Origin: Prostheceraeus crozeri
Taxonomy: Eukaryota; Platyhelminthes; Polycladida; Euryleptidae
Reading direction: 5' to 3'
NCBI GenBank assembly: GCA_907163375.1
Contig: CAJQUW010016185.1
Span: 124,001 to 188,000, forward strand
Length of the DNA: 64,000 bases
Made by a program: the position numbers and the translations under genes. Positions 25,972 through 42,794 of this stretch are shown here, piece by piece (positions within the stretch are counted from its first letter, which is position 1; every line of letters begins with the position of its first letter). Below the pieces are notes generated by a model that was not told the DNA's origin, did not search any database, and saw only the letters and a list, made by a program, of their open reading frames with translations.

Positions 25972-26610
25972 AGTAATGGGCAAAAGACCGTTCCAGGACA
26001 CCATAAAATTCAAAAAATAGCATCTTTAAAAACGACATAAATTCATGAATTTAGACCCTTTTTCAGGTTTTTAAGACCTAAATTCATGAATTTAGTCGTT
26101 TTTAAAGATACCGATTTTTCAAAAAATAGTATTTTTAAAAACGACATAAATTCATGAATTTTGGTCATTTTTCAGGTTATGAAGACCTAAATTCATAAAT
26201 TTAGGCGTTTTTAAAAATACCCAATTTTTCAAATTTTTCAAAATCTGAAATTTGAGAATTACAATTTTCACCCTTAAAATCATGACCGTTCCAGGACACC
26301 GAAAATCATAAAAGTTAAGAATCTCAAATTTGAGAATTAAAATTTTTACCCTTAAAATCATGACCGTTCCAGGACACCGAAAATCATAAAAGTTGAGAAT
26401 TTCAAATTCATGAATTTTATCCATCTTTCAGGTTTTTAAAATATATCATGTGACTAAAAATATTTCTTTAAAAATGGAAGAAACAAAAGTGGATGAAACC
26501 AAAAGACTATATCCTTCGTTATCTCAATTAAAAACAAGTGAAATTGATCTCAATTATTATTAAGATTAGAGCATTATGATAAATTAAGAAGACGCAATTA
26601 TTACTTAGAC
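25972..26610 (+). repeat. Left terminal inverted repeat of Polinton D
   Basis: It matches the reverse complement of the right end almost base for base. The block contains several palindromes of the type TAAATTCATGAATTTA (e.g. 26038, 26082, 26143). One ~80-bp unit (ACCGTTCCAGGACACCGAAAATC) is present twice here (26285 and 26362) and once on the right. The inner part (26474-26610) is a truncated copy of the right-end gene. Confidence 0.9.
26474..26610 (+). pseudogene. Truncated copy of the right-end membrane protein gene
   Basis: Starting with ATG at 26474, this repeats the first codons of the gene at 42370 (MEETKVDET), then diverges by indels and ends. At the position where the right copy has TGA (within ...TTATTATGAAGATTAGAG), this copy has TTA, showing that the right copy carries a nonsense mutation. 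It exists because the gene start lies in the TIR. Confidence 0.7.
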
Positions 26611-27390
26611 ATTCTTCGTTATTGCATTCTCAACGTTATTTAAAGTACTAATTGTGTGAACTAGAAGATCATTGTAACTCATAAACTCAAAATTATTCAA
26701 TGAACCCGTACACTGGCTGATAATTGAAGAGAGACAGAGATTGAAGAGAGAAAGAGATTTATTGTTCTAGCAATGGAAACATCTAACAACTTCTCCCTAA
26801 AATTATCGTGGAGAATCTTTTGTCATTTCAATTTACGCATCCGTAAACTTTTGACATTTCAACTTACGCGTGCGTAAAAGTTTTGACATTTCAATTTACC
26901 CCTACGTAAATTATTTTCAGAATCTGTTTTCAAAATCTATTTTCAAAGTCTGTTTTCAAATTCAGTTTTAGAAATCGATTTGCAAAATTCATTTAGCGTT
27001 TGCCAAACACATACGGGTAGTAAAGTACTTCCCATTGTGAAGACATGAATAGATTAAGCACATAAGAGTGCATTGACAATAAAAGCAAATGACAATAAAA
27101 TTCTTCTTGTGAACTCAGAACGCATAAACGCCGATATGCGGGTTAGTTGTTATGGCAATTTTAAACAATGATTTTAACGATGAAACATATTAACAAATGA
27201 AGTTCATGAAGAAAATGGAAATATGTAAAACAATATAGATTAGAATAATTATAATATGATCATTTCAAAATCGAATAAGTAGTAAGGAAAGTCATCATTA
27301 GAGAACAGTTTTAAATCAATACCCCCTCCCTTCTGACTTCTAGGGGTCCCTTAAGACATTTTTTTATTATAAAATCAGCAACATAAATGA
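26611..27390. other. AT-rich non-coding region of Polinton D with palindromic iterons
   Basis: No open frame of note occurs here. It holds the three-copy iteron array (26832-26910), four ~16-bp TCTGTTTTCAAA-type repeats (about 26920-26970) and a CCCCT/AGGGG hairpin (27321-27347). It lies between the left TIR and the protease gene and is the only long intergenic space in D. Confidence 0.6.
26832..26910. repeat. Three palindromic iterons (TTTACGnnnnCGTAAA), 31-32 bp apart
   Basis: TTTACGCATCCGTAAA (26832), CTTACGCGTGCGTAAA (26863) and TTTACCCCTACGTAAA (26895) are regularly spaced by about three helical turns, with TTTGACATTTCAA between them. Such spacing suggests a binding site for a dimeric protein, as in replication origins or operators. 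Confidence 0.65.
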
Positions 27391-27798
27391 GTTTTTGAAA
27401 TTATATGGAACCAAACAACTACAAATTTTGATCTAAAGAAAATTGCAAATCAATTAGGAATAAAGAATTTTCATGTTCTAATGAGAGCCGAATTACAATT
27501 CCTAAAAAATAAGCCAACTGTAAATTTCATAACAAATCTTCATACGTCAGATGAAAAAGGTGTACATTGGTCTGCAGGTATGTCTAATAAAAATGGAGAT
27601 AATTACTATTTTGACTCATACGGACTTCCACCTACAAATGAAGTCAAAAAATTACTTGGCAATGGAACTTATAATACATTTCAAATTCAAAAACCAGGAA
27701 CTACATATTGCGGTCAATTATGTCTTTATGTTTTATTTAAATTACAGGAAGGAGTACCATTTCTAGATATTATGTTAGAATTGAATAAGGGAATTTAA
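27391..27798 (+). CDS. Adenovirus-type cysteine protease of Polinton D
   Basis: The catalytic motifs are H in GVHWSAG (~27566), D in YYFDSYG (~27610) and C in TTYCGQLCLYV (~27710), the C5/adenain family. The frame is open from 27391, directly after a TGA. The first in-frame ATG is at 27481, but the 30 codons before it look like protease sequence (NFDLKKIANQLGIKNF), so the original start is lost or out of frame. It is the only plus-strand gene in the left part of D. Confidence 0.8.
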   Translation, partial: VFEIIWNQTTTNFDLKKIANQLGIKNFHVLMRAELQFLKNKPTVNFITNLHTSDEKGVHWSAGMSNKNGDNYYFDSYGLPPTNEVKKLLGNGTYNTFQIQKPGTTYCGQLCLYVLFKLQEGVPFLDIMLELNKGI

Positions 27799-27839
27799 TT
27801 CCCGAAAAACGTTAGTTCCAATAATAATGATAATGATAA

Positions 27840-28720
27840 TTAAAAATCACTTCGTTGTAATTCATTTTGATAAAATCGGCCTCTGATATTTTCATCATCT
27901 AAATCTTTGATTTCGTAAGTAATCGGATAAGTTTGATTTATTTTACAAACTTCAAATATTTCTTTAGTCCAATAGCCAACGAAGCCTTTATCAAATTTAT
28001 TCTTATACTTTAATATTCTAACTCTATCACCAATTTTAAACTTCGGCTTAAGTTTCTGCATATTCGGATTACTCTCATTCGAATAATTATTCTCGAATAT
28101 TTTTTTTCTTATCAAATCAGGGTCGTCAGAAGCATTCTTTGGGGTTTCTTCAATACCAGAATGAACTTTATTATTGTACTCTTCTACAACTCCTGGTAAT
28201 ATCTTCAACCATTTCTGATTTCTTTGCTCAGTAAATTTCTTGAATAATTTATTTTTTAACGTCCGATTGAATCTTTCTATCACTACAGCTTTTCCTGCAT
28301 TTTCAGTTGAATAAACAGTTTCAAATAATGGCTGAACGTTTCTGTTATAAAATTCCGACCCTTTATCAACAAACAATTTTTTTGGCTTTCTCTTACTTTC
28401 TTTAAAGATTTCTTCAAACGCATATTTAACTGATAGACCACTTTTATTTTTAAAGGATTTACCCAAGCGTATCGTGTATATAAATCTATAACGGTCAATG
28501 CGTATTTGTAGTCCCTTTCATTCGGAATATTTATTAGATCAGCACTCCAAATATCATCTTTATTAAATACTTTTACTTTCAATAAATATTTAGGCTTTCT
28601 GTATTCCCTATGAATTTCGGACGCGTAGGTTCGAGCGTTGCTCTCAGACAACTTTGCTGTCGTTTCATTTAAACCCTGACCGAATAATATTTTAGCTTGT
28701 AAAGCTTTCTTAACAAACAT
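27840..28720 (-). pseudogene. Retroviral-type integrase of Polinton D, frameshifted
   Basis: The DDE triad is D in IWSADLINI (~28545), D in LFVDKGSEF (~28365) and E in VIERFNRTLK (~28275). A C-terminal SH3-like segment follows (DRVRILKYK...YWTKEIFEV...GRFYQNEL). The first D is in the frame ending at 28283 and the other two in the frame open from 28466, so a frameshift lies at ~28440-28466. The N-terminal part runs directly out of the tail of the PLA2-like protein (VKKALQAKILFGQGL), so the usual integrase N-terminus seems deleted. I see no chromodomain, unlike the enzyme of Polinton C. Confidence 0.85.
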
Positions 28721-29122
28721 TCTTTCAATTTTTTCTCTAAATGTAGGATTCTGAATACTATCTCATTCTTGAATCATCTTCTTATCAGCTGCATGTCGAG
28801 AACTTAGATCATGATTTTGATAAGCTAAATCATGCCTGTAAGCTGCGGCATCTACTCTATTTATTGGTTCTTCACCTGGTTTTGGATTATTATTCTCATC
28901 TAGTCTTATATCTAATCGAGTTCCTGGACCGGTATATGAATGACCAGGAAGATGTTTTTCTTTTGAATATTTACTCCAAATAAATCCAGGAAAGTTTGCT
29001 AATGTTTTTTCTATGTCGTTACCTTCATAAATTTTACAATTTGAGTTTTTATTTTTGTTTAATAGATAATTCAATAAATCTAAATTAGAAATTTTTAATT
29101 TAATTAAATTTTCGGAATCCAT
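28640..29122 (-). pseudogene. Phospholipase A2-like virion protein of Polinton D
   Basis: The calcium-loop motif YTGPGT and the catalytic-type motif HDLAY (in VDAAAYRHDLAYQNH) occur in the order and spacing of the parvovirus VP1-type PLA2 domain (~residues 55-105). The ATG at 29122 is preceded by the AAAATG context common in D. The frame stops at 28763 (TGA) but continues in the same frame with codons typical of the family tail (NPTFREKIER), which then merge with the integrase region. In parvoviruses this domain breaches endosomal membranes during entry. For D only presence of the motif is shown; activity is unknown. Confidence 0.75.
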
Positions 29123-29166
29123 TTTAAAAGATAAAATATTTTTAAGGATAAAATAAAATCAATGTT

Positions 29167-29649
29167 TTACCGAATCATACTAGGACTTAGATATATTCCA
29201 GAACCATCTTTAGTTTCCTTAATTTCAATTAAATCATCAACATTGTGGAGAATATTTTTAAGAACTCGTTTTCCTTCATCAACTAATTTTAATTTACTAA
29301 TAAAATTATCTACTATTCCGTCACCCCTAGCAACTTTCTCTAACTCTCTATTATGACGTTTTTGTTCTTCTAATGCTGCCTTCTCTGATTTATTTTTATT
29401 TACTGCTTGGACAATACCAGCTGTCCCACCTGCAATACTTCCTGCTGCTGCTATGCCTCCTATTATTAGTGGAATTAATGGGAGAATTCCACCGTTCTTT
29501 TCTTCTTGTAATTGAATATTCTCTATCATTGGTTTACCTATGTAATACTTTTTTTTGTTAATCGTAATAGTTTTAGGGGTATTTTTGTCAACAATATTAC
29601 GTAATTTTAATTCAACAGTTTTATTATTATTACTTTTCGCTTGCGACAT
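29167..29649 (-). CDS. Membrane-active virion protein with GGILPLIPLIIGG helix
   Basis: The 160-residue frame is intact. A polar N-terminal half is followed by a glycine-rich hydrophobic segment (GGILPLIPLIIGGIAAAGSI) and a charged helical C-terminal half (NKNKSEKAALEEQKRHNREL). The hydrophobic segment resembles that of the pX-like proteins of Polintons and adintoviruses, including the one at 17670 in Polinton C. A role in core packing or membrane interaction is inferred. It lies between the capsid and PLA2-like genes. Confidence 0.6.
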   Translation of the reverse strand: MSQAKSNNNKTVELKLRNIVDKNTPKTITINKKKYYIGKPMIENIQLQEEKNGGILPLIPLIIGGIAAAGSIAGGTAGIVQAVNKNKSEKAALEEQKRHNRELEKVARGDGIVDNFISKLKLVDEGKRVLKNILHNVDDLIEIKETKDGSGIYLSPSMIR

Positions 29650-29654
29650 TTTTA

Positions 29655-29745
29655 ATAAAAAAATTTTAAGTTAAGAATTTTTAATCTATTCTAGTTATGA
29701 AAAAATTTTAAGTTAAGAATTTTTAATCTATTCTAGTTGTCAAAA
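29655..29745. repeat. Two tandem ~43-bp copies of TTTTAAGTTAAGAATTTTTAATC
   Basis: The unit TTAAGTTAAGAATTTTTA followed by ATCTATTCTAGTT occurs twice between the capsid gene and the 29167-29649 gene, with a third partial copy (TTTTAAGTTATC). It may be promoter-proximal. Confidence 0.7.
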
Positions 29746-29769
29746 TTTTAAGTTATCAAAAAATTTTAA

Positions 29770-31103
29770 TTAATTTATCCTTGCCATCTTTCCATTAAGA
29801 ATTTCAATAGAATATTTTACATCTTCTAGCAATAAACCATAAGCCATCAATGAAGTTGTGGAATCTTTATTTTCAATATTAATTGTTACATCACAACCAG
29901 TCTTGATAATATCTTCAGATTGTGCACTTAAATCGAAACAGAAAACAGGATATAAATGTCTCCAATCTCCAGGAGTTAATTGTGGTTCAACTCCAAATTC
30001 TATACAAAGATTTCGATAAGAATCATATCCTTCCATAAATTGATTATTGGTATCATCGAATCTTAATGGATCAATTGGATATCGGGTTTGATTTAAAGCA
30101 ACTTGTAAACTTCGAATTGTATTAATATGGAAGAGATTATTGTTCTTATCAAAACTTGGAGAATTATTTCTTTGAAAAGTTAGTAATAAATATCTTGGTG
30201 TATTTGAAGTTCTAGTAAAATGCCAGTTAAATCTTTGTTCGGAAAAAGTTACTGAACTAGCAGTACGCTTTAGAAAATTAACTGGAATTGGTTTGTTAGT
30301 ATTTAATCTTTTTGCAATAGCTGTTTCAATCTCTAAACTAGGAGTAATATGCTTAATCCACCATTCAAGTCTATCAATTTTTAAATATTCTTTTTTTCCA
30401 GTCTTACCAAAAAGATTAATTCATTATTTGCTGTGCGATGAATTATTAATTTAAATTTTAATTGATATGATATTTTATCATAATCTAAATATCCGAATAA
30501 TGGAGACAATGACCAATTTACTGTCTGTTTACTTTTCTTGTTAAATTCACGTCTTTCTTTATATGCACTATTGTTTGTTTTATTTAAATGTTTTGCAATA
30601 TTTTCTACATCTTTCGCAATTCCTGCTGCATCTGTTCCAGCGTGAGTTAAATCATCAACAATTATACCATCATTAGTATCAGGAAACCAACCTTCGATTT
30701 CATACTTTTTATTATTTTCACCAATTGTTACAAATCTAAGCATTGTATCAATTACACCTGGAGAATCACTTATTGTTTCTATATTTTGAGTTGCAACATC
30801 TAAACGCATTTGTGTAAATAATCTTGGAAAGAAATTATTCTCTAGTGCAATATTATCGGTATCTGGTAATGGTGTTGTAAAATTGGCATCACTATACAAA
30901 GAATATTCACAGTGTAAAAATTAATCAGGTAAATATAAATAACTCTGCTGATTATCAACTTCAAAAATTAAATCGCCTCCAGTATTTACTCTACTGGAAG
31001 ATCCGGGATTCATAGCAATTCTTATATAGTCATTCTTTTTTTGATTATAACTAACACCTGGTGGTTTATCTAATTCAAATTTATTTTCAATTAGCAAAGA
31101 CAT
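29770..31103 (-). pseudogene. Double-jelly-roll major capsid protein of Polinton D
   Basis: The ATG at 31103 follows TTTTTTATAAAA. The protein contains NNFFPRLFTQMRLDV, NWSLSPLFGYLDYDKISYQLKF and YPVFCFDLSAQ segments that match the insect/cnidarian Polinton DJR capsid group, distinct from the F54H12.2-like MCP in Polinton C. Expected length is about 445 residues. Breaks are an in-frame TAA at about 30923 and a frameshift near 30385-30400. It forms the virion shell in intact relatives. Confidence 0.75.
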
Positions 31104-31213
31104 TTTTATAAAAAATAATTTAACATTTTGTTTTTTCTCACACACAGAAAAAATTTTGCTAAAAAATTTTACTAAAAAAATTTTACTAAAATATATTTTA
31201 GAATTTTGCTAGA

Positions 31214-31250
31214 CCAGCTCCGCTGCAGCTTTGCTGGTTAGACCGAAGGT
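31214..31250. repeat. Twin hairpin 1 (intergenic)
   Basis: CAGC-TTT-GCTG (31226-31236), within an ACCAGC...GCTGGT stem, is followed by ACC-GAA-GGT (31242-31250). It lies just upstream of the capsid gene and is GC-rich in AT-rich surroundings. Confidence 0.75.
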
Positions 31251-31333
31251 TGCTGCTCACACCATTACCTCTTATTTCTTCAATTGAACGTTTTATGGCT
31301 ACGCCTGATTTCTTCTTATGTTTACTATCAGAC

Positions 31334-31346
31334 GGAGCTCCGCTCC
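31334..31346. repeat. Hairpin 2 (GGAGC-TCC-GCTCC)
   Basis: A perfect 5-bp stem with a 3-nt loop, at the end of the 31365-31762 gene. Confidence 0.75.
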
Positions 31347-31364
31347 TCAAGGTTTCCCCCACAG

Positions 31365-31762
31365 CTATGTTAGCAATTTTTTTTTTGTTTCCTCTGAAAG
31401 TTTTTTTAAATTTTTAAGTTCTTCAGAATCATTCCTAAGTTTACGAATAGCTTCTAGTTGTTTTAATTCGTTTTGAGACTTAACAGCATTTGATATTGCA
31501 CTAGCTGTACTACCTATAGCAGCTGCTCCTTTTGCAGCAGATGTAATCAAATCTTTATCATTTTTATTTAGTTAACGATACTTCCAATACCAGAAAAGAT
31601 GCCAGCTCCTTCCGTGTGAACGGCACCTGCGGTGCCTAGGAACTTTTGTGTTCCGACTTTTTCTCTATTATGATAATGATAAACAGGATTCCTACGTGGT
31701 TCATGAGCAATTCTTTGATTTGAAGCAAAATGCTTAAGATTGTGTTTATAAATTATAGGCAT
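31365..31762 (-). pseudogene. Small alanine/glycine-rich virion-type protein, broken
   Basis: The frame from ATG 31762 (context AAAAAAATGCC) encodes a basic start (YKHNLKHFASNQRIAHEPRR) and ends GIFSGIGSIVN at a stop at 31568. A second frame (to 31365) encodes SAAKGAAAIGSTASAIS followed by a charged coiled coil. Together they look like one small-residue helical protein with a frameshift near 31560. In the first frame, the codons for LGTAGAVHTEG come from twin hairpin 3. Similar Ala/Gly proteins in other Polintons are minor virion proteins; the function here is unknown. Confidence 0.45.
31612..31636. repeat. Twin hairpin 3 (inside an ORF)
   Basis: CCGT-GTGA-ACGG (31612-31623) is followed by GGCACC-TGC-GGTGCC (31622-31636). 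It lies inside the minus-strand frame 31568-31762 without breaking it. Confidence 0.75.
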
Positions 31763-31802
31763 TTTTTAGGAATAAATTTGACTTTTGGGAAAAATATTTA
31801 CG

Positions 31803-31835
31803 ATCGGCTAAAGCCTCGAGGAGCATCTCTCCGAT
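31803..31835. repeat. Hairpin cluster 4
   Basis: An outer stem ATCGG...CCGAT (31803-31807/31831-31835) encloses GGCT-AA-AGCC and GGAG...CTCC stems, giving a three-way junction shape. It lies just upstream of the 31762 start codon. Confidence 0.6.
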
Positions 31836-31919
31836 TACGATTTACGTGTGTGAATGTCCAACAACTTCGTGATAACTTTATTAATTTTCCGTTGCACTTT
31901 ATCTATTGCGTCAAGTAGC

Positions 31920-32720
31920 GTGTGATGTACTTTAATTTCTTTTCTATTAACTTGCATTTTCTCCTGATTCATCTTCAACGCCGTTTTAAGAGCATTGAAT
32001 TTAATTTTAAGAACATCTAGTTGTCTTTTAACAGAATCTAACTGTTCTTTATTTTCTTTAGAGTTTTCTTGTAAATTTTCTTTAATTCATTTTCTAAATT
32101 GATTTTAAGAGTTTTCATTTTATCAACTTTTTGATTAAGTGAGTTTACTTCATTTATTATTCTATTCATCTTTTTCATTTGTTGAGTAATTTTAGAACTT
32201 AATTCATCAACACTTTTTTGGAATGTAGTTTGTAACTGCTTTAAATTTTTTTAATTCTTTCAGGAAGTTTTTCTATTTCATCTTCTAATTGTTCTTTTAA
32301 CATTTTTATCTGATGTTTATTTTTAATGACAGCAGATTTTAACTTTATAGAAAGTAATATTAAAATTTTTGATTGTTCAGAAATCTTTTTAAAAAGTTTT
32401 GCTATATCTGCTTCTAGCTCTCTATCCTTTTTATCAAGTTTTAATAATTTTTCCTTTCATGATTTGTCATTAAGTTTAAGCAACTTTAATTCATTCATCA
32501 GTGGAACCAAAACATCGTTTATATATTTTTCTTTTAAGTCATTGATTTGTGTATCAACATATTGTTTATTTGTCAACTCTGTATTTTGTTGCGGAAGAAT
32601 AGAAAGATGCAATGGACCAGATAAAACGTCTCCAGTTTTCATGATATAATTTTCTATCTCTATTTCTAATTCACGATTATTCGGGATATATGCACCTCCA
32701 CCAACATTTGGTAACATCAT
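31920..32720 (-). pseudogene. Fiber-like protein: phage-type fiber motif plus long coiled coil, broken
   Basis: From ATG 32720 the first frame has a GGGAYIPNN start and then TGDVLSGPLHLS...TNKQYVDTQINDL, the (T/S)G.L.L...P......K.YVD repeat of phage tail fibers, followed by coiled coil. A TGA at 32457 interrupts, but the same frame continues with heptad-like charged sequence (KKDRELEADIAKLFKKISEQ) to about 32250, and further fragments of coiled coil follow in other frames to ~31920. A trimeric spike or fiber on the vertex would fit, as in adenovirus. The fiber motif is clear; assembly role is inferred. Confidence 0.6.
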
Positions 32721-32843
32721 TTTTAACAATTAAAAAAAAATTTTTTTATATAATGAGAAAAAAATAAATTTTTTCTAATAAAAATAAAAAATTAAAATTT
32801 TTTCTAATAAAAAAATAAAATTTTTTCTAATAAAAATAAAAAA

Positions 32844-33811
32844 ATGGAAAAAGCAAATTTAAAAAAATTATATTCGTCCGCATCATCCTGTTCTTCTTAT
32901 TCGACGAGATCAACGGGATTTGAAAATAAATGTTTTGATAATAATAATAATAATCATAATAATAATAAATATTTAGAGAACAGACTAAAGGTTTACCTTC
33001 TATAGAAACTAATTATTGCATTTTTCCAGGTGATCCATTTATAAAATTTATGGATATAGTAAGTAAATATAATGATGTAGCTTATGTTGAACTGAATAAA
33101 GAAAATATGGTTATAATAGGTCATAATAACGTTTATGGTTTTATTAGAGCAGTTTTGCCGATTAGTAATACTGATTGGATAGAAAATAAAATTATCAATT
33201 ATATCAATATTAAAGAATTAGTTAAAAAATTAAAATCTTTTTCCAAAGAAAAAATAAGATTATTTGTTGATGAACAAAACCAATATAATATTCATATCGA
33301 GAGTAAAAAGCATAACGAAGAATTATTATGTCAAGTTTATTATAGAGATACAATTTATAAACAAGAAACATTACAAATGCCCCAAAGATATGATGATGAT
33401 GCATATATAGGATTATATTCAAACTTAAATACTAATTTGTTGAAATCTTACATAAATGGTTTAGCTCAACAAGAGAAAATTTATATGTGGACTACACCTC
33501 ATACTATTAACAATGACCATAATCATAATCATAATAAACGAACCGAAGGTTCTAGGGCTTTGCCCGATCTTAAAGAATCTTATAATAATAATGATGATGA
33601 TAATATAGATGATAATAATATAGATGATGATTCTGAAACATCTGAAAATGGTGTAAATGGTAAAAAAGATTATAAAAATATTAGTAATTATAAAAATTTA
33701 AGTGAAGAAAATTTATATCTCATACTGATGTACATGATATTAATACTACATATAATCAAAATTTATCTAAATTTCATTTTCTTACAATTGAAAATAATAA
33801 TGATGGAATAG
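32844..33811 (+). pseudogene. Unknown protein, possibly sliding-clamp-like first half
   Basis: ATG 32844 (context AAAAAAATGG) starts a Ser/Asn-rich frame that ends soon. A second frame open from ~32985 encodes FIKFMDIVSKYNDVAYVELN...INIKELVKKLKSF and an Asn/Asp-rich tail with twin hairpin 5 in frame. The alternation of strands and the following ORF (33812-34198, with F...SKRDQRPIFF) is loosely like a PCNA-type clamp split by a frameshift, but I cannot support that firmly. It precedes the polymerase region. Confidence 0.35.
33540..33566. repeat. Twin hairpin 5 (inside an ORF)
   Basis: GAACC-GAA-GGTTC (33540-33552), TA, GGGC-TTT-GCCC (33555-33565). It reads RTEGSRALPD in the plus-strand frame. 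An almost identical copy in the opposite orientation is at 40704-40729. Confidence 0.9.
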
Positions 33812-34198
33812 TTGAAGATAAAAAATTTAAAAAAAACTACAAAATTTAAATTAGGATTTACATCTAATCAATTTAAAAGTTTATCATCTTTAATAAAAAC
33901 TAAAAGTGATTCAGATTATGGTGGTGTTATTAAATTTTCCAAAAGAGATCAAAGACCAATATTTTTCTCTATTATATTATTATCAGATAAAAAATGTAAT
34001 TTAGAGTTAGATATTCCAATAAGAGAATGGTATCCTATCAGGGAATGGCATCCTATACCAAAAAGTGTAATTTATGATGTTGAAGAATCAATTTATGATG
34101 ATGATGAAGAATCAATTGATGATGATGATGAAGAATCAATAGTTAGTGAAAATAAATTTAAATTATCTTTTGATAAAACGTTATATGATAAAACTTAA
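33812..34198 (+). CDS. Unknown acidic protein with DDDEESI repeats
   Basis: The 128-residue frame directly follows 33811. It starts basic (MKIKNLKKTTKFKLGF) and has an F.SNQFKSLSSLI helix. A doubled IREW(Y/H)PI segment and tandem DDDEESI repeats follow. It ends in a YDKT repeat region that carries on past the stop as TATGATAAAACT copies. The function is unknown. It may be the second half of the gene before it. Confidence 0.35.
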   Translation: MKIKNLKKTTKFKLGFTSNQFKSLSSLIKTKSDSDYGGVIKFSKRDQRPIFFSIILLSDKKCNLELDIPIREWYPIREWHPIPKSVIYDVEESIYDDDEESIDDDDEESIVSENKFKLSFDKTLYDKT

Positions 34199-34612
34199 TA
34201 TGATAAAACTTAATGTGATAAAAATTAATGTGATAAAGAAAATAAAATAACTTAAGAACGTGAAATATATAATAATATATATCAACTCTCAAGACCTTGA
34301 TATTAGAATGTTTATATCTAAAATTAAAACACAATTTTTTCTTTAAAAAATAAAAAAATGGAAAATACCAAGTTTTATTGTAACTTATGTAAAAAAAAGT
34401 TGCAAACAAAAAGAAGTTATCAATCTCATTTAAATAGTAAATTGCATTTACAAAATGTAGATCGAGTTGATGAAGGAAAGATATTAAAATTAAATAGTTA
34501 TAAAAACTATCTAGAAACATTACCTACTGATAAAAAAGTTAAAAAAATGTTTGATGATTATTCACATTCGGAATATAAAAAAGTTTTTAATAGTGAAGAT
34601 GAACATGTACAT

Positions 34613-34645
34613 GGGACATCGGAGATGTCTTCCAGGGCTTCGCCC
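34613..34645. repeat. Twin hairpin 6 (inside polymerase N-terminal ORF)
   Basis: GACATC-GGA-GATGTC (34615-34629), a TTCCA spacer, GGGC-TTC-GCCC (34635-34645). It reads GTSEMSSRASP in frame. Confidence 0.9.
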
Positions 34646-34790
34646 GCACCAGATGGGAGATATATATTTAGCGATACTGATGAATTTAACGAAATAGATG
34701 AATTAAACGAAATTAAAAAAAACAGATGAAGCTGAACGAACCGATGAAGCCGTAACAGATATAAGATATTTATTTAATGAATCTGTACAC

Positions 34791-34823
34791 GGGACATCAA
34801 AGATGTCTTCCAGGGCTTCGCCC
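34791..34823. repeat. Twin hairpin 7 (inside polymerase ORF)
   Basis: GACATC-AAA-GATGTC (34793-34807), then GGGC-TTC-GCCC (34813-34823). It reads GTSKMSSRASP in frame, 178 bp from the previous copy. Confidence 0.9.
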
Positions 34824-35151
34824 GTTGAACATAATGAAACCGATGAAACTTTTTCTGATATTCTAACCAACTTTTATAATATATTTAGGAAATCTTTCAA
34901 ATGTTATATGAATGTAGAAGTACTTTATACAAAAAATGGACCTGATGGAATTCCTGAAGAAATAATACAAGGACATTTTACAAATTCGCAAGAAATTCAT
35001 AATGTAAATGATATACAACCCATATTTGAATCGATGATACTTAAATTAGAAAATTGTATAATTGAAGCCCAGTTACGTGAATCTGGTTGGAGATTTGTTA
35101 AAATACTATCTAAGAAAATAGTAATTGATAAATATAAAGTGCACTGAGGCA

Positions 35152-35164
35152 GCGACTGCGTCGC
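35152..35164. repeat. Hairpin 8 (GCGAC-TGC-GTCGC)
   Basis: A perfect stem four bases after the TGA that ends the frame 34803-35147, enclosed by a GGCA...TGCC stem (35148-35151/35173-35176). Confidence 0.75.
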
Positions 35165-36297
35165 GAAACGTTTGCCGTGTATATATTTTTAGCAACTAAT
35201 TTTATTAAAGCAATTACTAAAGGGAGTGCCGCATTTTGGCTTTCTCATCCTCATCATGAACACCCTCCCGTATAAGGCTATCAACTAGGTTAATAAAGTT
35301 TCATAAAAAGAATAAAAATTTAATAGAAGTAAAGGTTTTTGAATTAAATGTGAATTATGTTTCTACTGGTAAAATTACACCACTTAACTCAGATTCAAAA
35401 AAAATTTATTTGAATAATAAAAATTTATGTCAATCAGAAATAGTATATAATGATACAGGAAATTACATGCATCATAATATTTTTTACCAAGGAAATATAA
35501 TATGTACTGAAAAATTTCAAATTGTTAAAGCATTCTCACCAATAATGATTAATCATAATAATTATAAAGGACGTAATTATAATTATAATTATGATTACGA
35601 TTATTTATCTTTATCTTTAGAATATCAACAAAAATTACAAAATTTAAATAAAAGTTTACAAAAATGTAAAACAGATTATCAACTACAAACAAAAATATTA
35701 GTACAAGAATATGGCCATAAATATCAAAATAAGATAGAAACGATTCAAAAATTAAATGAAGAAAATAATGAAGACAATAAAGAATTAAATAATGAAGAAA
35801 ATGAAACCAATCAAAAAATAAATGAATCTTTAAAAAAATGTCTACAACAATATAAAGAACAATATGATAAAGAATATAGTTATCAGTTACAAATATTAAA
35901 TCAAAATTTTCATCGAAATACATTTAATCTTACAAAAGAAATTGATGAAACACATGAAATATATCAGGATAAATTTGAAAAACTAGAACAGACAAAACAG
36001 CCAGCACAAGTGAATATATTATGTTATCAGGGTCATTTTATATTGTGTAAAGATGTTTCTATATTTACAAAAACTTCAGATAATACAAATTTTCCTTGTC
36101 TCCAATGTATGACGAGCTTTAGAACTTTAGAAGAAATGAATAGACATTTGGAGAATTGCCAAAAAAATGAAGCAGTCAGAAACACATTTCCAAAAGATGA
36201 TTATTTAGAATATAATAAATGGTATTTTAAAAATAAAGTACCCTTTACTATTTATTGTGATTTTGAAGCATATGATGTTAATATGACACAAAATCAC

Positions 36298-36330
36298 GGG
36301 ACATCGGATATGTCTTCCAGGGCTTCGCTC
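36298..36330. repeat. Twin hairpin 9 (after Exo I of the polymerase)
   Basis: GACAT-CGGAT-ATGTC (36300-36314), then GGGC-TTC-GCTC (36320-36330, one G-T pair). It reads GTSDMSSRAS in frame, a few residues after the Exo I motif. Confidence 0.85.
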
Positions 36331-36673
36331 GATTCTGATAATTATAAATATGAAAAAGGTGCATCTGAACAAAGTATGAAAAATATTTATTTGAACAAAA
36401 ACCATTATGTTGGGGAATGTACATTCATTCAAATTATCCTGAATTATTTAAATCAGAATATTTTCAATACTATGGTGAAGATAGTTCAGAAATGTTTACA
36501 AAGAAAGTAGAAGAATTACAAAATTATTTTTCACAATTGCTTGAAACAAATATACCAATGCTTCCATTAACGGATGAAGAAAAAATTAATTTTGTTAATG
36601 AAACAAATTGTTATTACTGTGGAAAAGAATTTACAAAAAATTGTAAAAATGGCAAAGGTAGATATCTTGATAA

Positions 36674-36693
36674 GCGAAGCGGCGGCTCTGCCG
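36674..36693. repeat. Hairpin 10 (inside polymerase)
   Basis: GC-GAA-GC is followed by CGGC...GCCG with an inner GGC-TCT-GCC. It reads KRSGGSADK just before the DHDHINGLYRG motif. Confidence 0.65.
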
Positions 36694-38971
36694 ACAAAGT
36701 AAAGGATCATGATCATATAAATGGATTATATAGAGGTGCAGCACATAATTCTTGTAATTTTAATGCTAATAAATTTAAATATAACTTTGTTCCTCTATAT
36801 TTCTACAATGGTTCTAAATATGATTTCCATCTAGTAATGAAAGATTTATTTTCATCTGAAAAATTACAACAACAACAAATAAATGTACTATGTAAAACAG
36901 AACAAGAATATTTTTCAATGCAATTAGGTTGTATTAGAATTTTAGATGCATTTAGATTTTTTACTCTTTATTCATTAGATGTTATGGGAAAAACTTTGAA
37001 ACCTGAACAATGTAAAATATTAAATAAATATAATTTAAAACCTTTGAAAGGAATATTTCCGTATGAGTACATAACTGGAGATTTTAATTCTGTGAATAAA
37101 ATTATGGAAGAAAAACAACTTCCTCCAATAAATAAATTTAAATCAACATTAAAACAATCACAATTATCTGACGAAGACTATGCAGAAGCTGAAAAGAATT
37201 GGAGAGAGTTAAATTGTAAAACAATGTATGATTATACAATGAAATATCTTCAGATAGATGTATTAATACTAGCTGATCTTTTCGAAAACTTTCGTGACAT
37301 GTGTTTAGAATATTACGGAATAGATCCATGTTATTGTTATTCTATACCAGGTTTAACATGGTTAGCAGGATTAAAACATACAAATGTTAAACTTAAACAT
37401 TATAAAGAAAATACATATGATGAATTATTATTTTTTGAATCTGGAATTAGAGGTGGAGTTTCATCAGTTTTAGGTAATCGTTATGTACAGTGTTACAATA
37501 AAAAAGTAAATCCTGATGATTATGGAATAATGAAACCTTTATCTCCAGAAGAAAGCGATCAGTTTATAAAATTGTTTAATCAAAATATAGAAGGACTTAT
37601 ATCAAATGAAGTTAGTCAAGCAGCAGTTGATGAAATCATGAGAGAAAACTATTTGTTATATTATGATTTTAATAGCTTATATTCTTCTTGCATGATACAA
37701 GAATTACCAACAGGTGAAATGTCATGGTGCAATATTCTAGATTATCAAAAAACATATGATGGAAATTATAATCATGGTTATATATATGAAGTTGATTTAG
37801 TATATCCTGATGAAATAAAAGATAAAACAAAATATTTTCTTTTCTGTCCCGAAAACAAAATTCCCAATATAGAAGATTTTTCAGATTATCAAAAATCTTT
37901 AATTCCTAAAAAATACAGACCAACAAAAAAACTTATGTTAACACAAAGTAATAAAGGAAAGTATGTTGTTGAAGGAAGAATGCTAGATTGGTATTTAGAA
38001 CATGGAATGATTCTCACCAAAATACATCGAAAACTATTTTATCAAAAATCTAAATGGTTAAAAAATTATATAGAGTTCAATATTGAAAAACGTAAAATAG
38101 CTAAAAGAAATAAAGATGATTTTGGAAACGTGTTATTCAAATTAATGAATAATGCATTTTATGGTAAAACTTTAGAAAATGTGCGTAATAGACAAAATAT
38201 TGAAATAGTTTATGATAAAGATAGGTTTCAAAATTTAACAAGGAAACCTACATATAAAAGAACTACTAGATTTAGTGATGAACTATGTGCTGTACATTTA
38301 CGTCGAATTAGCGTAAAACATGATAAGTTTAATTTTATTGGATTCAATATATTAGAATTAGCTAAACTATTTATGTATAAATTTATATATGATTATTTAG
38401 CACCTGCTTATGGCAAAAACTATAAATTACACTTTACAGATACCGATTCTGTTTTCTTAGAATTAACAATACCGTATAATTCTTCACTTGATGAAGAAAT
38501 TAATAAAATAAAAGATATCATTCATCCTTCTGATTTATGTAAAGAAAAAGATGAGTTATAAAATGAAGATTTCATAACAGAAGCTATATTTTTAAAATCT
38601 AAATGTTACTGTTATAATACAACTAATAATATTAAAACACATAGAACATTAAAAGGAATTTCAAAGGCATCAGTGGCTAATCAAATAACATTTCAAGATT
38701 ATAAAAATGTATTATTTAATAATGAAATAAAAACAGCATGTAATTATAGACTTAATTCAAAGAAACATAAAATGTATTTAAAAGAAGAACATAAATTAGC
38801 ATTAGATCCATTTGATGATAAAAGAAAACTTTTACCTGATGGAATAACTACTTCACCTTTTCAATTTTCTAATTTCTAAGATAGACAAATTTGATATATA
38901 TATAAAATAAAATAAAAATATTGTAACACTATATTTGTATATTTTTATCACTCGGCAAACAAATCTTCTAT

Positions 38972-38996
38972 CGACTTTCAGTCGGGGCGAAGCCTA
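38972..38996. repeat. Twin hairpin 11 at the end of the ATPase gene
   Basis: CGACT-TTC-AGTCG (38972-38984) and GGC-GAA-GCC (38986-38994). The ATPase stop codon (TAG on the minus strand, 38994-38996) overlaps the last stem base. Confidence 0.85.
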
Positions 38997-39764
38997 GTCA
39001 GAGAACAATTGTTCGATAACTCTATCATGAATTTTTTTATCAATATTAATTGTGATAAATCCATAATCTTTTGACCAAGCATTGTTACACGATTGTTTAA
39101 ATTCATCTTTATTTCCTACGCATAAATCTCTTAACAAATCACTTAAGTTTCTTGCATTTATTTCAAATAGTATAAATATGTTTGCATTCTTTCTAATAAC
39201 ACTTCCGTCTAATGAATACATACTTTGTGTTAAATAAAAAACACTACGGTTATTATGTCTGCCTCTTGTGAAGTAATTTCTCTGAACTGACTGATTTCTA
39301 TCATTAACACAATCATCAAAAATTACACAATGTTTCATTGTTTTATCTAGTTTACTAGGATCTTGCATATTACCACTATCATCTATTAATTGTATCTTTA
39401 TATGCTTATTTTTATTGGTTTCAACTAATTGATTATTTTTTGCTGCTTCTTCACACCACGAACTTATTTCTTCTTCATCTTCAGATTTTTCATATTCTTT
39501 GAATAATGAAGCAATTGCTGTTTTTTTAAGATTATTTTCAAATCCATATTTTAAAAATTGATAGACAGGTTGTCGTTCTGCTGTTGTTGTATAAATTATA
39601 AGATTGTTATAATCCAAAAAATTTGGAGTCGTTAAAATTTTAAATAATAGATACGTTTTTCCACATCCTGATCTTCCACAAATAACTGACAAAACTTTAT
39701 TAGATAAATTTGGATGATGATTAAATTTAAGTTTTTTTTTATTTAATGGTAGTACTTCACTCAT
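38994..39764 (-). CDS. FtsK/A32-type genome-packaging ATPase of Polinton D (intact)
   Basis: The 256-residue frame is unbroken. Walker A is CGRSGCGKT (~residues 28-36) and Walker B is HCVIFDDCV (~147-155), followed by GRHNNRSVFYLTQS, the sensor-type segment of this family. It pumps DNA into capsids in related viruses. The ATG at 39764 has the upstream context TTTTTTATTAAAAAATG shared by other D genes. The stop lies in a twin hairpin. It is one of few intact long genes in D. Confidence 0.92.
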   Translation of the reverse strand: MSEVLPLNKKKLKFNHHPNLSNKVLSVICGRSGCGKTYLLFKILTTPNFLDYNNLIIYTTTAERQPVYQFLKYGFENNLKKTAIASLFKEYEKSEDEEEISSWCEEAAKNNQLVETNKNKHIKIQLIDDSGNMQDPSKLDKTMKHCVIFDDCVNDRNQSVQRNYFTRGRHNNRSVFYLTQSMYSLDGSVIRKNANIFILFEINARNLSDLLRDLCVGNKDEFKQSCNNAWSKDYGFITINIDKKIHDRVIEQLFSD

Positions 39765-39831
39765 TTTTTAATAAAAAAATTTTATTTTTAATTTTATTTT
39801 TAAAGAAGAAGAAGAAAATTAAACTTCTCTA

Positions 39832-39857
39832 GCTTCGCGTGGGAGTTTATACCTCCC
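39832..39857. repeat. Hairpin 12 spanning the stop codon of the penton-like gene
   Basis: GGGAG-TTTATAC-CTCCC (39841-39857) carries the minus-strand stop TAA (39847-39849) in its loop. A small GC-TTC-GC stem lies beside it (39832-39838). Confidence 0.75.
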
Positions 39858-40635
39858 GAACCAAAAGATCTATCATAATCTCTTCACCTCCAAAATTTAT
39901 TTCTTGTCCTTTCTCATCAGTGATTTTAATGTTGATGTTGTTAATAGTTTTTCTTGTAATAGGGAAATATATTAATGTTTGGGGAAATACATTTAATCTA
40001 TAACCAATGGGTACAGTAAAAGCTGGAAAACTGAATATTAAATTTGATAATTTACCATTTATATATCCTCCTTCAATAATGTCACAATGTACAACAATTG
40101 AATTTATTTCAGTTATTTTTGGAATCTTCTCACCTAAATGATAACCTTGACTATAGGTTTGTTTATCAAATCCTAATAGCTTTGACAATGATCTATCATG
40201 ATTAAAATCAACTTGATGATTTTCGTCTAAAGTAAGAGAAAATTTATTAACTGCCGGTTCAACTGCAAAATGTAATTGTTTCTTATCTTTAAATGGTATA
40301 CCTAAATGTCTCTTAATTTCATTTGATATTGATTCAACTTCGTAAGAACCAGGAAGAAAAGTTAGTATTTTCCATGTTTTGCCTTTATCAGTAGAATATC
40401 TAAATTGATCATTCACATCTTTGATAACATTTTGAATAGTGTTAAATGTAGAGAAACTAGTCAATGCAATTTGATAATTTTTATTCTGTTCTAAATGAAG
40501 AATGAGTTCTAAATTACAAGTGTGTGATGAAGTAGTTGTTATAATTTTTAACGTCGTACTAAATTTTGATGAACCCAAAATCTCTGTCAAATTTTCTAAA
40601 TGATTATTAATTTTGTCTAAATCTGCTGAACGCAT
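39847..40635 (-). CDS. Penton/PY-like virion protein of Polinton D (intact)
   Basis: The 262-residue frame is intact with ATG at 40635. An N-terminal helical region (LDKINNHLENLTEIL) is followed by beta-rich sequence including YQIALTSFSTFNTI, PGSYEVESISNEI, LLGFDKQTY, and a C-terminal part (PAFTVPIGYRLNVFP...INNINIKITDEKGQEINFGGE). The C-terminal organisation parallels the end of the Polinton C protein at 42801-44171 (LGF..., ITDxxGxxIxFxGG). This family is a conserved virion component of Polintons; a vertex or minor capsid role is inferred. Confidence 0.7.
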   Translation of the reverse strand: MRSADLDKINNHLENLTEILGSSKFSTTLKIITTTSSHTCNLELILHLEQNKNYQIALTSFSTFNTIQNVIKDVNDQFRYSTDKGKTWKILTFLPGSYEVESISNEIKRHLGIPFKDKKQLHFAVEPAVNKFSLTLDENHQVDFNHDRSLSKLLGFDKQTYSQGYHLGEKIPKITEINSIVVHCDIIEGGYINGKLSNLIFSFPAFTVPIGYRLNVFPQTLIYFPITRKTINNINIKITDEKGQEINFGGEEIMIDLLVREV

Positions 40636-40703
40636 TTTTTAGTTAAAATTTTGAATAAAAATTTTTAATAAAAAAATTAAAAACAACAACATATTTCAGC
40701 TAC

Positions 40704-40729
40704 GGGCGAAGCCCTAGAACCATCGGTTC
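40704..40729. repeat. Twin hairpin 13 at the end of the 40714 gene
   Basis: GGGC-GAA-GCCC (40704-40714), TA, GAACC-ATC-GGTTC (40717-40729). It is the reverse orientation of the copy at 33540. The minus-strand stop TAG (40714-40716) and the last codons (TNRWF) come from the element itself. Confidence 0.9.
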
Positions 40730-41538
40730 GTTATACTTTTATAATCCTCTTCATTTAGAATCTTCTTTTCTAACAGTCTTCTTAATATAGCACGAATTTC
40801 ATTGAAACTAGAATTATGTCCTTCTTTTATTGCAGATATTAAAATATTTAATCTATTTAGTAATTCTTGTGGATCATCTGGTAAAAATACAGTTGTTTCT
40901 GTTTTCTGTTTTTCAGATAAACCTTTTCCTACTTTAGGTGCCGTTGATAATAAATTTTCTAATTGTTTATAACGTCTAAGAGATTTTACTGCACCAACTC
41001 TATCTAACATAGCTTTATATTTTATAAGATCTTCTACAGCATAATTATTTAAATCTGCTCCTCTTAAAAGATCAACAAAATTTCTATCTAAATTAAAAGG
41101 AGATTTATCTGGTGAAAAAATTAAACCTCGAAAAGGTTGTGGAAATATTTCTTTTTGTCCGAGATAAAATCTAGGTATTGTTTTTCCATCTATAAATGAA
41201 ATAGAATGTTCAAATTGCATAGATTTTGGTAATTTCTTATTAATGTTTGATTCTAGTAATCCATAGTCATCTGATATAGTTTTGTGCTCTGGATCTGTTA
41301 TATCAATTTGTTTATCATTATTTGTACTTTCTTTTTCAAGAGTTTTAAATGGTTTCATAGTTTTTCCAAAATCAATTTTTACTTGTTCGGTTTGCTGCAT
41401 TTTTTCAAACATATCAGATTGAATACCAGCTTTTATCATTCTATGTTGAAGATGATTTTCTTTCATAATATTTCTTTGTTTTATTAACTCTTCTAATTGT
41501 TTTATTCTTTTAAAATTATCAGCTCTAATTTTATCCAT
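40714..41538 (-). CDS. Conserved Polinton structural-cluster protein of unknown role (274 residues)
   Basis: ATG 41538 has the D-type context (ATTTTAAAAATGG). The longer frame to 41604 is open but lacks that context. The protein has an N-terminal coiled coil (FKRIKQLEELIKQRNIMKEN), a charged linker and a central part (PFRGLIFSPDKSPFNLDRNF). A C-terminal helical region (DDPQELLNRLNILISAIKEG...ILRRLLEKKIL) ends it. Size and position resemble the 18727-19371 gene of Polinton C. The last five codons come from an inserted hairpin. I cannot assign a function. Confidence 0.6.
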   Translation of the reverse strand: MDKIRADNFKRIKQLEELIKQRNIMKENHLQHRMIKAGIQSDMFEKMQQTEQVKIDFGKTMKPFKTLEKESTNNDKQIDITDPEHKTISDDYGLLESNINKKLPKSMQFEHSISFIDGKTIPRFYLGQKEIFPQPFRGLIFSPDKSPFNLDRNFVDLLRGADLNNYAVEDLIKYKAMLDRVGAVKSLRRYKQLENLLSTAPKVGKGLSEKQKTETTVFLPDDPQELLNRLNILISAIKEGHNSSFNEIRAILRRLLEKKILNEEDYKSITNRWF

Positions 41539-41659
41539 TTTTAAAATATAATATTTGAATTTTGTGGTAACATTGGAATACAGCAAAAACATTTTACTGA
41601 ACAAATTATTTTTTTATTGCTTTGTTGTCTGACATCTTTTCGTTTAAAGTTTTCTCGTT

Positions 41660-42370
41660 TTAAGTTTTGTTTAATAAAGTTTTGCTTAAATTTTCGCTTA
41701 AAGTTTTTAGCTCTTCTAAAAAAATTTTGTCATTTTCTTCATTAGAAATTTTACCATCACCAGAAATTTTGCCATCCTGTTTATTCTTATCATCAACTTT
41801 TTCTGACTGTAATTGAAATGATATTTGATTTACTTCATTAGCTATTTGATCAAATTTTTCAATCTCATCTAACGTAATAACATTATCATCACATGCTCTT
41901 TGAAAGTAGTAATGCAATTTGTCATAGACTTCTTTAATATGTAAATGCTTAGTTTTTAATGATTTCTGTTTCTTAGTTATTAAAGATTTATCTAACATTG
42001 TAACAAGTGAAGTTGTAAAAACACCCGTACCTGTTAAAGCAGTACCAACTACTGGAATTACTAAAACACCTGAAGATATAACAATTGTTAAAGCACCTAA
42101 ACTTAGTGTTAAGAATATGCCAATTCCTTGTGTTACATTCTTAACATTAGACCATCTCTTTCTTAATTTTTTATAATGCTCTAATCTTCATAATAATTGA
42201 GATTCCTTATCTTTCATATACCTAACTCTGTCTTTATGTTTTTCTTTATTCATTTTTTCGATGTTTATCTTTTCAATGTCCATTAAAGTAGAACTACGTT
42301 CATATGATAACGAAGGATATATTCTTGCGGTTTCTTCCACTTTTGTTTCATCCACTTTTGTTTCTTCCAT
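41660..42370 (-). pseudogene. Right-end membrane protein gene of Polinton D
   Basis: It starts at ATG 42370 inside the TIR with MEETKVDETKVEE. A TGA at ~42186 interrupts, and the same frame continues with a basic segment (LEHYKKLRKRWSNVKN) and two hydrophobic helices (IGIFLTLSLGALTIVISSGV, VIPVVGTALTGTGVF). The charged helical tail ends at 41660 (EELKTLSENLSKTLL). The truncated left-TIR copy has TTA where this copy has TGA. It is a likely membrane protein of unknown role. Similar double-glycine hydrophobic proteins occur at element ends in insect Polintons. Confidence 0.55.
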
Positions 42371-42794
42371 TTTTAAAGAAATATTTTTAGTCACATGATA
42401 TATTTTAAAAACCTGAAAGATGGATAAAATTCATGAATTTGAAATTCTTAACTTTTATGATTTTCGGTGTCCTGGAACGGTCATGATTTTAAGGGTGAAA
42501 ATTGTAATTCTCAAATTTCAGATTTTGAAAAATTTGAAAAATTGGGTATTTTTAAAAACGCCTAAATTTATGAATTTAGGTCTTCATAACCTGAAAAATG
42601 ACCAAAATTCATGAATTTATGTCGTTTTTAAAAATACTATTTTTTGAAAAATCGGTATCTTTAAAAACGACTAAATTCATGAATTTAGGTCTTAAAAACC
42701 TGAAAAAGGGTCTAAATTCATGAATTTATGTCGTTTTTCAAGATACTATTTTTTGAATTTTATGGTGTCCTGGAACGGTCTTTTGCCCATTACT
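42300..42794 (-). repeat. Right terminal inverted repeat of Polinton D
   Basis: It is nearly identical to the reverse complement of 25972-26522; the main differences are one missing ~80-bp repeat unit and indels in the gene start. It ends ...GGTCTTTTGCCCATTACT. Confidence 0.92.

What the first reader, a model, noticed from the sequence alone, without database searches (positions are those of the whole stretch)
33540..40729. A family of GC-rich twin hairpins inserted in frame in the genes of an AT-rich Polinton
About a dozen short elements made of two adjacent stems with 3-nt loops (mostly GAA, TTC or TTT) occur in Polinton D at 31214, 31334, 31612, 31803, 33540, 34613, 34791, 35152, 36298, 36674, 38972, 39841 and 40704, and I saw none elsewhere in the window. 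Four copies lie inside plus-strand ORFs, and all four are read in the same frame, giving (G)TS(E/K/D)MSSRASP or RTEGSRALPD. The second stem (GGGC-loop-GCCC) is shared while the first stem varies with compensating changes (GACATC/GATGTC, GAACC/GGTTC), so structure rather than sequence seems to be kept. This is like the Rickettsia palindromic elements that insert in frame into proteins. I know of no such family in Polintons.
Basis: partly seen in the sequence, partly recalled or inferred. Interest (0 to 1): 0.92.

Follow-up and report, generated by a model that had tools for sequence, protein, structure and literature searches.

The report
Jumping twin hairpins inside a Polinton
A virus-like transposon, repeated many times in the genome of an unidentified eukaryote, carries tiny (about 28-letter) double-hairpin DNA elements that have jumped into many sites, including the middle of its protein genes, where they add ten or so amino acids without breaking the reading frame.

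Summary
The finding is real and largely as read. Polinton D (25972-42794) carries ultra-short mobile twin hairpins, 28-37 bp: stem-loop, short linker, stem-loop. Comparing the window copy with 20 sister copies gives empty and filled alleles of the same site. Nine sites show a 2-bp target duplication (AT x4, TA x3, TT, AC). One exact 27-mer occurs 3,211 times in the genome (reversed control 0), and 40 of 40 sampled loci lie in Polinton D copies. Copies 99% identical differ by insertions, so movement is recent. Several sequence types share the shape, two of them (E, F) not recognisably alike to any other, and hairpin modules are swapped at fixed sites. Inserts in open ORFs keep the frame; polymerase ORFs of up to 1522 aa contain them, while the two closest relatives lack the encoded peptides where they cover the sites. 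Of 13 listed places 8 are confirmed; 35152 and 39841 are something else; 31214, 31334 and 36674 are doubtful. Closest known kinds: yeast mitochondrial GC clusters and Allomyces double-hairpin elements; the in-frame habit resembles Rickettsia palindromic elements. Ten literature searches showed no such family in Polintons. The mover is unknown; an endonuclease VII-like stretch in the Polinton's own polymerase is an untested candidate.

The parts
25972..42794 (.). Polinton D, carrier of the elements; flanked by 6-bp duplication CATGCA
   Evidence: terminal inverted repeats; flanks printed; 4629 first-look candidates for its polymerase DNA, 40 of them scored
25972..26503 (+). left terminal inverted repeat; empty in this copy, filled by the exact 28-mer with AT duplication in other copies
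42341..42794 (-). right terminal inverted repeat; empty in this copy
31622..31655 (.). type E twin hairpin, 34 bp, 2-bp duplication AC, total insert 36 bp, inside a minus-strand ORF in several copies
   Evidence: found in 7 of 21 rows
31805..31833 (.). decayed type D twin hairpin, 29 bp, AT flanks; the same site carries C, D or hybrid elements, alone or in tandem, in other copies
33539..33566 (+). type A twin hairpin, 28 bp, in frame (KRTEGSRALPD); target duplication not clean (AA/AT)
   Evidence: found in 15 of 21 rows
34610..34646 (+). type B twin hairpin, 37 bp; other copies carry type A (TA duplication) or nothing at this site
   Evidence: 10 A, 2 B, 9 empty of 21
34788..34824 (+). type B twin hairpin, 37 bp; other copies carry type A (TT duplication, L016 against L017) or nothing
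   Evidence: 6 A, 2 B (one decayed), 13 empty of 21
36295..36331 (+). type B twin hairpin (decayed stem) shortly after the DFEAYN motif of pPolB; other copies A (AT duplication) or empty
   Evidence: 7 A, 12 B, 2 empty of 21
36673..36695 (+). GC-rich hairpin present in all 21 copies, inside the endonuclease VII-like stretch of pPolB; perhaps an older insertion
38972..39015 (.). type F twin hairpin (28 bp, AT duplication in L016/L019 against empty L017) with a further hairpin nested in it in the window copy
40703..40730 (-). type A twin hairpin, minus-strand sense, overlapping the end of the ORF 40714-41604; other copies type B, a hybrid, or empty
   Evidence: 7 A, 11 B or hybrid, 3 empty of 21
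34358..38880 (+). pPolB gene (broken in this copy, open in L017-L019) that receives the inserts; carries an endonuclease VII-like stretch
   Evidence: ends read by eye
38994..39764 (-). A32-like packaging ATPase of Polinton D
   Evidence: Pox_A32 match of the L017 orthologue

Best explanation
The hairpins are non-autonomous, ultra-short mobile elements of Polinton D. SHOWN: they are present or absent at many sites with a 2-bp target duplication (so a 2-nt staggered cut is the simplest origin), in both orientations, in genes, spacers and terminal repeats; identical copies sit at unrelated sites; hairpin modules are exchanged at fixed sites; sequence types of little or no likeness share one build and often the same 28-bp length. 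INFERRED: what is recognised is the folded shape more than a sequence, and movement happens while Polinton DNA is replicating (long single strands are expected from protein-primed strand displacement), which would explain why only Polinton DNA was found hit. The mover I think most likely is a structure-specific nuclease made by the Polinton itself: the endonuclease VII-like stretch in its DNA polymerase, which would cut at the hairpin base and make staggered target cuts that the polymerase fills in. Selection keeps inserts that stay in frame and encode short hydrophilic peptides.
For: Filled/empty alleles with a 2-bp duplication at nine sites: terminal repeat AT, 34613 TA, 34751 TA, 34791 TT, 35816 AT, 36293 AT, 36349 TA (one flank base differs), 38972 AT, 31612 AC (read by eye). 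Exact 27-mer 1670+1541 times, reversed control 0/0. 40 of 40 sampled loci in Polinton D copies: 28 in terminal repeats, 12 at five gene sites. L016 and L017 are 99.07% identical over 9720 bases, yet L016 and not L017 has inserts at 35816 and 34791. Of 162 twin hairpins in the fetched copies 60 have identical dinucleotides outside a 1-nt cap, against 9.5% background; copies of one site are not independent there. Types fold alike. A/B swap at five sites; C/D hybrid at 31803. Endonuclease_7 bits: P0004 32.5 (cut-off 23.6), P0001 23.4, L017 fragment 18.9, P0002 14.8; the domain is reported in insect Maverick POLB (PMC5803895, passages).
Against: No transposition or excision was observed. The nuclease role rests on a domain match that is below cut-off in this family, and the whole L017 polymerase (P0121) did not list the domain even at E up to 5; the domain also occurs in Polintons not known to carry hairpins. 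Recombination between copies spreads alleles, so sites filled in many copies are not independent events. The 40 loci were picked by me, not at random, from the roughly 100 places listed of 3,211, and for one sequence type; types B to F were not counted genome-wide because the search machine stopped answering. Duplications are unclear at 33537 and 40704; the type A variant of 33537 is 0 of 12, type D29 1 of 4 and minor C variants 0 of 3 for identical flanks. 28 bp plus 2 is already a multiple of three in the non-coding terminal repeat, so divisibility by three in ORFs is weak evidence of selection. L011 has 28-bp inserts at 34613 and 34791, not multiples of three, in broken ORFs.
Confidence: 0.55

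Rival explanations
1. They are ordinary MITE-like non-autonomous DNA transposons moved by a host transposase (for example a Tc1/mariner relative) that happens to act on Polinton DNA.
For: Duplications of A/T bases only at 8 of 9 sites; a Tc3-like transposase fragment lies in the window.
Against: 28 bp is little room for two transposase sites; types share at most one or two terminal bases (CG...CG in A, D and F; not in C and E); duplications are AT, TT and AC as well as TA; 40 of 40 sampled loci are in one Polinton family.
Confidence: 0.15
2. Hairpins arise and change in place by template switching at palindromes during replication, and alleles then spread only by recombination between Polinton copies; there is no transposition.
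For: At 31284 a GAACGTTC palindrome is expanded to a hairpin in L029; modules are swapped at fixed sites; broken matches suggest that copies recombine.
Against: The same exact 28-mer stands at six unrelated sites (terminal repeat, 34613, 34791, 36293, 37735, 40704), and the 28-bp type D at two (35816 in L016, terminal repeat in L048); switching at local palindromes does not give that.
Confidence: 0.12
3. They move through an RNA copy (as was suggested for Allomyces double-hairpin elements): a short structured RNA is reverse-transcribed into a staggered break.
For: They fold as RNA and would be transcribed with the genes.
Against: No reverse transcriptase among the Polinton D proteins scanned (nine, one; several small ORFs were not scanned); no tail at the inserts.
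Confidence: 0.08
4. They are fixed regulatory hairpins, such as transcription terminators or 3'-end signals like those of giant viruses.
For: 38972 lies at the 3' ends of the convergent polymerase and ATPase genes, 40704 at a gene end.
Against: Presence/absence between near-identical copies, both orientations, and positions in the middle of ORFs.
Confidence: 0.05
5. They are skipped by ribosomes, like mitochondrial byp elements.
For: Hairpin inserts in coding genes.
Against: In L012, L017, L018 and L019 the polymerase frame is the same on both sides of the inserts and open through them, so skipping is not needed.
Confidence: 0.04

Closest known systems
GC clusters of Saccharomyces mitochondrial DNA (e.g. 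GC42; PMC4478555, passages read)
   Same: Short GC-rich palindromic mobile DNA in an AT-rich genome; short flanking direct repeats (AG or ACT); presence/absence at homologous sites; merging and shuffling of units; a cluster in a protein gene (var/rps3).
   Different: Here in a nuclear-integrated, virus-like transposon; mostly A/T duplications at varied sites; a two-hairpin build shared by sequences of little likeness; in-frame inserts in several genes.
Double-hairpin elements of Allomyces mitochondrial DNA (Paquin 2000, known to me only through passages of PMC2800124)
   Same: Two hairpins, optional between close relatives, also inserted in genes and not removed from transcripts.
   Different: Those lack flanking duplications and an RNA route was suggested; here there is a 2-bp duplication.
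Rickettsia palindromic elements (passages of PMC10969869)
   Same: Palindromic elements inserted in frame into unrelated proteins, giving a repeated peptide.
   Different: About 150 bp and bacterial; here 28-37 bp, twin hairpin.
Pandoravirus submariner MITEs (mentioned in passages of PMC5799277)
   Same: Palindromic mobile elements in a DNA virus, some in coding genes.
   Different: Described as MITEs; I saw no twin-hairpin build reported.
Magnusiomyces mitochondrial inserts (byp elements; passages of PMC5009743, the name partly recalled)
   Same: Block inserts in many coding genes.
   Different: Those disrupt the frame and are bypassed; here the frame is kept.

Membership tests
Yeast mitochondrial GC clusters | short GC-rich palindromic element in AT-rich DNA with a short direct flanking duplication | tested here: met
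   nine sites with 2-bp duplication
Yeast mitochondrial GC clusters | mitochondrial location | tested here: not met
   sampled elements lie in Polinton copies of a 2.05-Gb assembly, so not filed as a member
Yeast mitochondrial GC clusters | sequence of a known cluster class | not tested
   no cluster sequences were compared
Allomyces double-hairpin elements | two adjacent stem-loops | tested here: met
Allomyces double-hairpin elements | no duplication of flanking bases | tested here: not met
   2-bp duplications
Rickettsia palindromic elements | in-frame insertion into ORFs giving a repeated peptide | tested here: met
   type A in the same frame at five ORF sites (inserts not in an open stretch of 330 nt were left out of that list)
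Rickettsia palindromic elements | about 150 bp | tested here: not met
   28-37 bp
MITE | terminal inverted repeats shared with an autonomous transposon | tested here: inconclusive
   at most one or two terminal bases are shared between types; no autonomous partner was searched for
byp elements | insert skipped during translation | not testable with these tools
   the preserved frame argues against a need for it

The most novel reading that the evidence does not exclude
A class of mobile DNA defined by shape instead of sequence: twin-hairpin sequences of different origin (A/B, C/D, E, F) are all moved inside one virus-like transposon by a structure-recognising nuclease that is part of its own replicative polymerase, with hairpin modules freely exchanged, and the transposon's proteins evolve by absorbing the resulting 10-13 residue peptides.
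Probability: 0.3. Interest if true: 0.93.

Novelty: new variant of a known kind. Interest (0 to 1): 0.8.

Why it matters
Ultra-short hairpin mobile elements are described mainly from organelles and bacteria, and how the mitochondrial ones move was still open in the papers I read passages of (PMC4478555, PMC2800124). Here they live in a nuclear virus-like transposon with very many similar copies, so insertion, exchange and loss can be read directly, and a candidate enzyme sits in the same small genome. It also shows protein genes repeatedly gaining short foreign peptides without loss of the frame. That makes the questions of how such elements move, and how proteins tolerate them, directly testable.

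Tried and rejected
A first twin-hairpin scan with a gap limit of 4 found only 2; I relaxed it. Single-hairpin counts are raised outside D too, so I dropped them as evidence. Viral contigs: 0 exact matches for types A and B; a 16-mer of hairpin 2 gave 3 hits without a twin hairpin, taken as chance. Prokaryote genomes: 0 for type A. Relatives of pPolB in viral contigs: 4 stretches matched a pattern, none encoded a relative. Phage records: none. The 469-aa protein had no homologue; ATPase relatives were mostly unnamed sequences, so the host stays unidentified; the rRNA search failed twice. No solved structure by sequence. Regulatory hairpins and ribosome bypass were considered and ranked low. In print: searches of the held library listed no such family in Polintons; subscription papers are not held, and I looked at listings, and at passages of eight papers and the abstract of one.
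Full report
What the window is. The window is a piece of a 2.05-Gb, 14,165-contig assembly, taken to be a eukaryote from its size and content. Polinton D spans 25972-42794, with terminal inverted repeats about 0.5 kb long (98% complementary over the outer 367 nt) and a 6-bp flanking duplication CATGCA (flanks printed). Sister copies encode a DNA_pol_B_2 polymerase (pPolB) and an A32-like ATPase; an integrase fragment at 28286-28720 matches rve weakly, below the cut-off. Protease-like, phospholipase-like and capsid-like ORFs are my reading of translations, not tested. Its polymerase DNA gave 4629 first-look candidates in the genome, of which 40 were scored, at 95-100% identity; the true copy number was not measured.

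The observation. A strict twin-hairpin scan finds 5 in D against 0.17 expected and 3 outside against 4.0 expected (100 shuffles). 35152 and 39841 are something else; 31214, 31334 and 36674 are unresolved.

Insertions. I fetched 20 sister copies and aligned them with the window copy. Best single case: at 35816 L017 reads AAAGAAT-TAAATG and L016 reads AAAGAAT-[28 bp]-ATTAAATG; none of the other 19 rows has an insert there, and the two copies are 99.07% identical over 9720 bases. L016, L019 and L028 have a 28-bp type F element with AT duplication at 38972 where L017 is empty; L017 and L019 are 99.55% identical over 9673 bases. Nine sites have a 2-bp duplication: terminal repeat AT, 34613 TA, 34751 TA, 34791 TT, 35816 AT, 36293 AT, 36349 TA (reverse orientation; one flank base differs between alleles), 38972 AT, 31612 AC. 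At 33537 and 40704 it is not clean; at 31803 and 37735 it looks like AT, but the flanks of the empty allele differ. Whether each difference is a gain or a loss was not tested on a tree; the duplication argues for gain.

One family by behaviour, several by sequence. Type A (28 bp) has stems GAACC/GGTTC and GGGC/GCCC; B (37 bp) has a GACATC/GATGTC first hairpin with the same second hairpin; D (28 or 29 bp) and C (29 bp) have other stems; E (34 bp) and F (28 bp) yet others. Seven representatives all fold as two hairpins; six oligos did so as RNA and as DNA, with z-scores from -0.9 to -3.7, so folding energy alone is modest evidence for the short GC-rich ones. E and F are at most 0.54 alike to any other type; shuffled pairs average 0.35 with maximum 0.54. 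A-D (0.56-0.64), C-D (0.66-0.68) and A-B (0.71) are higher and may be related. Among 162 twin hairpins in the window copy and 60 fetched stretches, 60 have identical dinucleotides just outside a one-base cap, against 9.5% at random positions: exact type A 32 of 42, D28 10 of 10, F 3 of 3, exact C 4 of 4; against this the type A variant found at 33537 is 0 of 12, D29 1 of 4 and minor C variants 0 of 3. B and E score 0 there because the one-base cap does not fit them. These are copies, often of one site, not independent events.

Exchange of modules. At five sites (34613, 34751, 34791, 36293, 40704) different copies carry A or B, sharing the second hairpin. At 40704 both types share the same irregular right flank, and at 34791 most A copies and the B copy of the window share a mismatched duplication, which favours exchange in place over repeated insertion. 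At 31803 L026 has hairpin 1 of C and hairpin 2 of D. Merging and shuffling of units is also reported for yeast GC clusters (PMC4478555, passages).

Where they live. The exact type A 27-mer occurs 1670 times forward and 1541 reverse; the reversed pattern never. I picked 40 loci, not at random, from the roughly 100 listed places: 40 of 40 are in Polinton D copies, 28 in terminal repeats and 12 at 34613, 34791, 36293, 37735 and 40704 (the element was masked, not, but every locus there matched beyond the element). There was no exact type A match in viral contigs or in the prokaryote collection. Other types and other Polinton families of this genome were not surveyed.

Effect on proteins. pPolB ORFs of 1505, 1522 and 1497 aa (L017, L018, L019) and a 1338-aa one (L012) run through their inserts; most other copies are broken into shorter ORFs. 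The closest relatives, P0001 (72% by local alignment, 76% in the multiple alignment) and P0002 (61 and 60%), have no residues matching the insert peptides where they cover the site: P0002 at the N-terminal insert, both at the inserts after DFEAYN and at 36674 (P0001 starts after the N-terminal sites). Inserts at ORF sites are 30, 36 or 39 bp, or 27 at 36349 in L016, L017 and L019; exceptions are two 28-bp inserts in L011, whose ORFs are broken. The terminal-repeat insert is also 30 bp, so this length is partly intrinsic. Outside ORFs 31 and 38 bp also occur (31803, 40704). Type A is read in the same frame at five ORF sites by script, which listed only inserts in an open stretch of at least 330 nt, and at 34751 by eye; two of its three frames are stop-free, so six sites would agree by chance about 1 time in 32 if independent. 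The reverse-oriented type A at 36349 and type D at 35816 are read in another phase.

How it may work. A 2-bp duplication points to a 2-nt staggered target cut. That all sampled copies lie in one Polinton family suggests that movement happens when Polinton DNA is separate or replicating, or needs a Polinton product. pPolB of this group carries an endonuclease VII-like stretch (CxxC...DHDH...GAAHNSCN): P0004 passes the Pfam cut-off (32.5 against 23.6), P0001 is just below (23.4), the L017 fragment 18.9, P0002 14.8, and the whole L017 protein did not list it at E up to 5; the hairpin at 36674 sits inside this stretch. The domain is reported in insect Maverick POLB (PMC5803895, passages). T4 endonuclease VII cuts branched DNA and cruciforms (recalled, no call). 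A polymerase-borne, shape-recognising nuclease is therefore my preferred mover, at perhaps 30%; that the elements are mobile and essentially confined to this Polinton family I hold at about 90%.

Known or new. Nearest kinds are yeast mitochondrial GC clusters and Allomyces double-hairpin elements; Rickettsia palindromic elements share the in-frame habit. Ten literature searches listed nothing of the sort in Polintons. I call it a new variant of a known kind.

Noticed in passing
window 35138-35286: A segment peculiar to the window copy; in 20 of 20 sister copies the match to the window breaks here, and the copies printed have about 220 bp of polymerase-coding DNA instead.
   Followed up: partly
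window 39838-39862: Tandem repeat (unit about 21 bp, CGGGAGTTTATACCTCCCGAA) of variable copy number between Polinton copies, at the 3' end of the ORF 39847-40635.
   Followed up: partly
window 31284 and L029, L018, L026: A GAACGTTC palindrome has become GAACCGTAGGTTC by 9 extra bases in L029, and a 21-bp insertion with this hairpin is in L018 and L026: possible birth of a hairpin by template switching.
   Followed up: no
window 38972-39015 and L022: Elements nested in an element: a further hairpin sits inside the type F twin hairpin in the window copy, a longer one in L022.
   Followed up: partly
G000 contig C205, 1194013-1194255 (place listed): The exact 27-mer stands three times about 108 bp apart, and again three times on the other strand about 21 kb away, so the element seems to have been multiplied with a tandem unit of the terminal repeats.
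   Followed up: partly
window 19572-20264, 24521-25393, 50321-51139: Other transposon genes in the window: integrase core, Tc3-like transposase, DUF4817.
   Followed up: no
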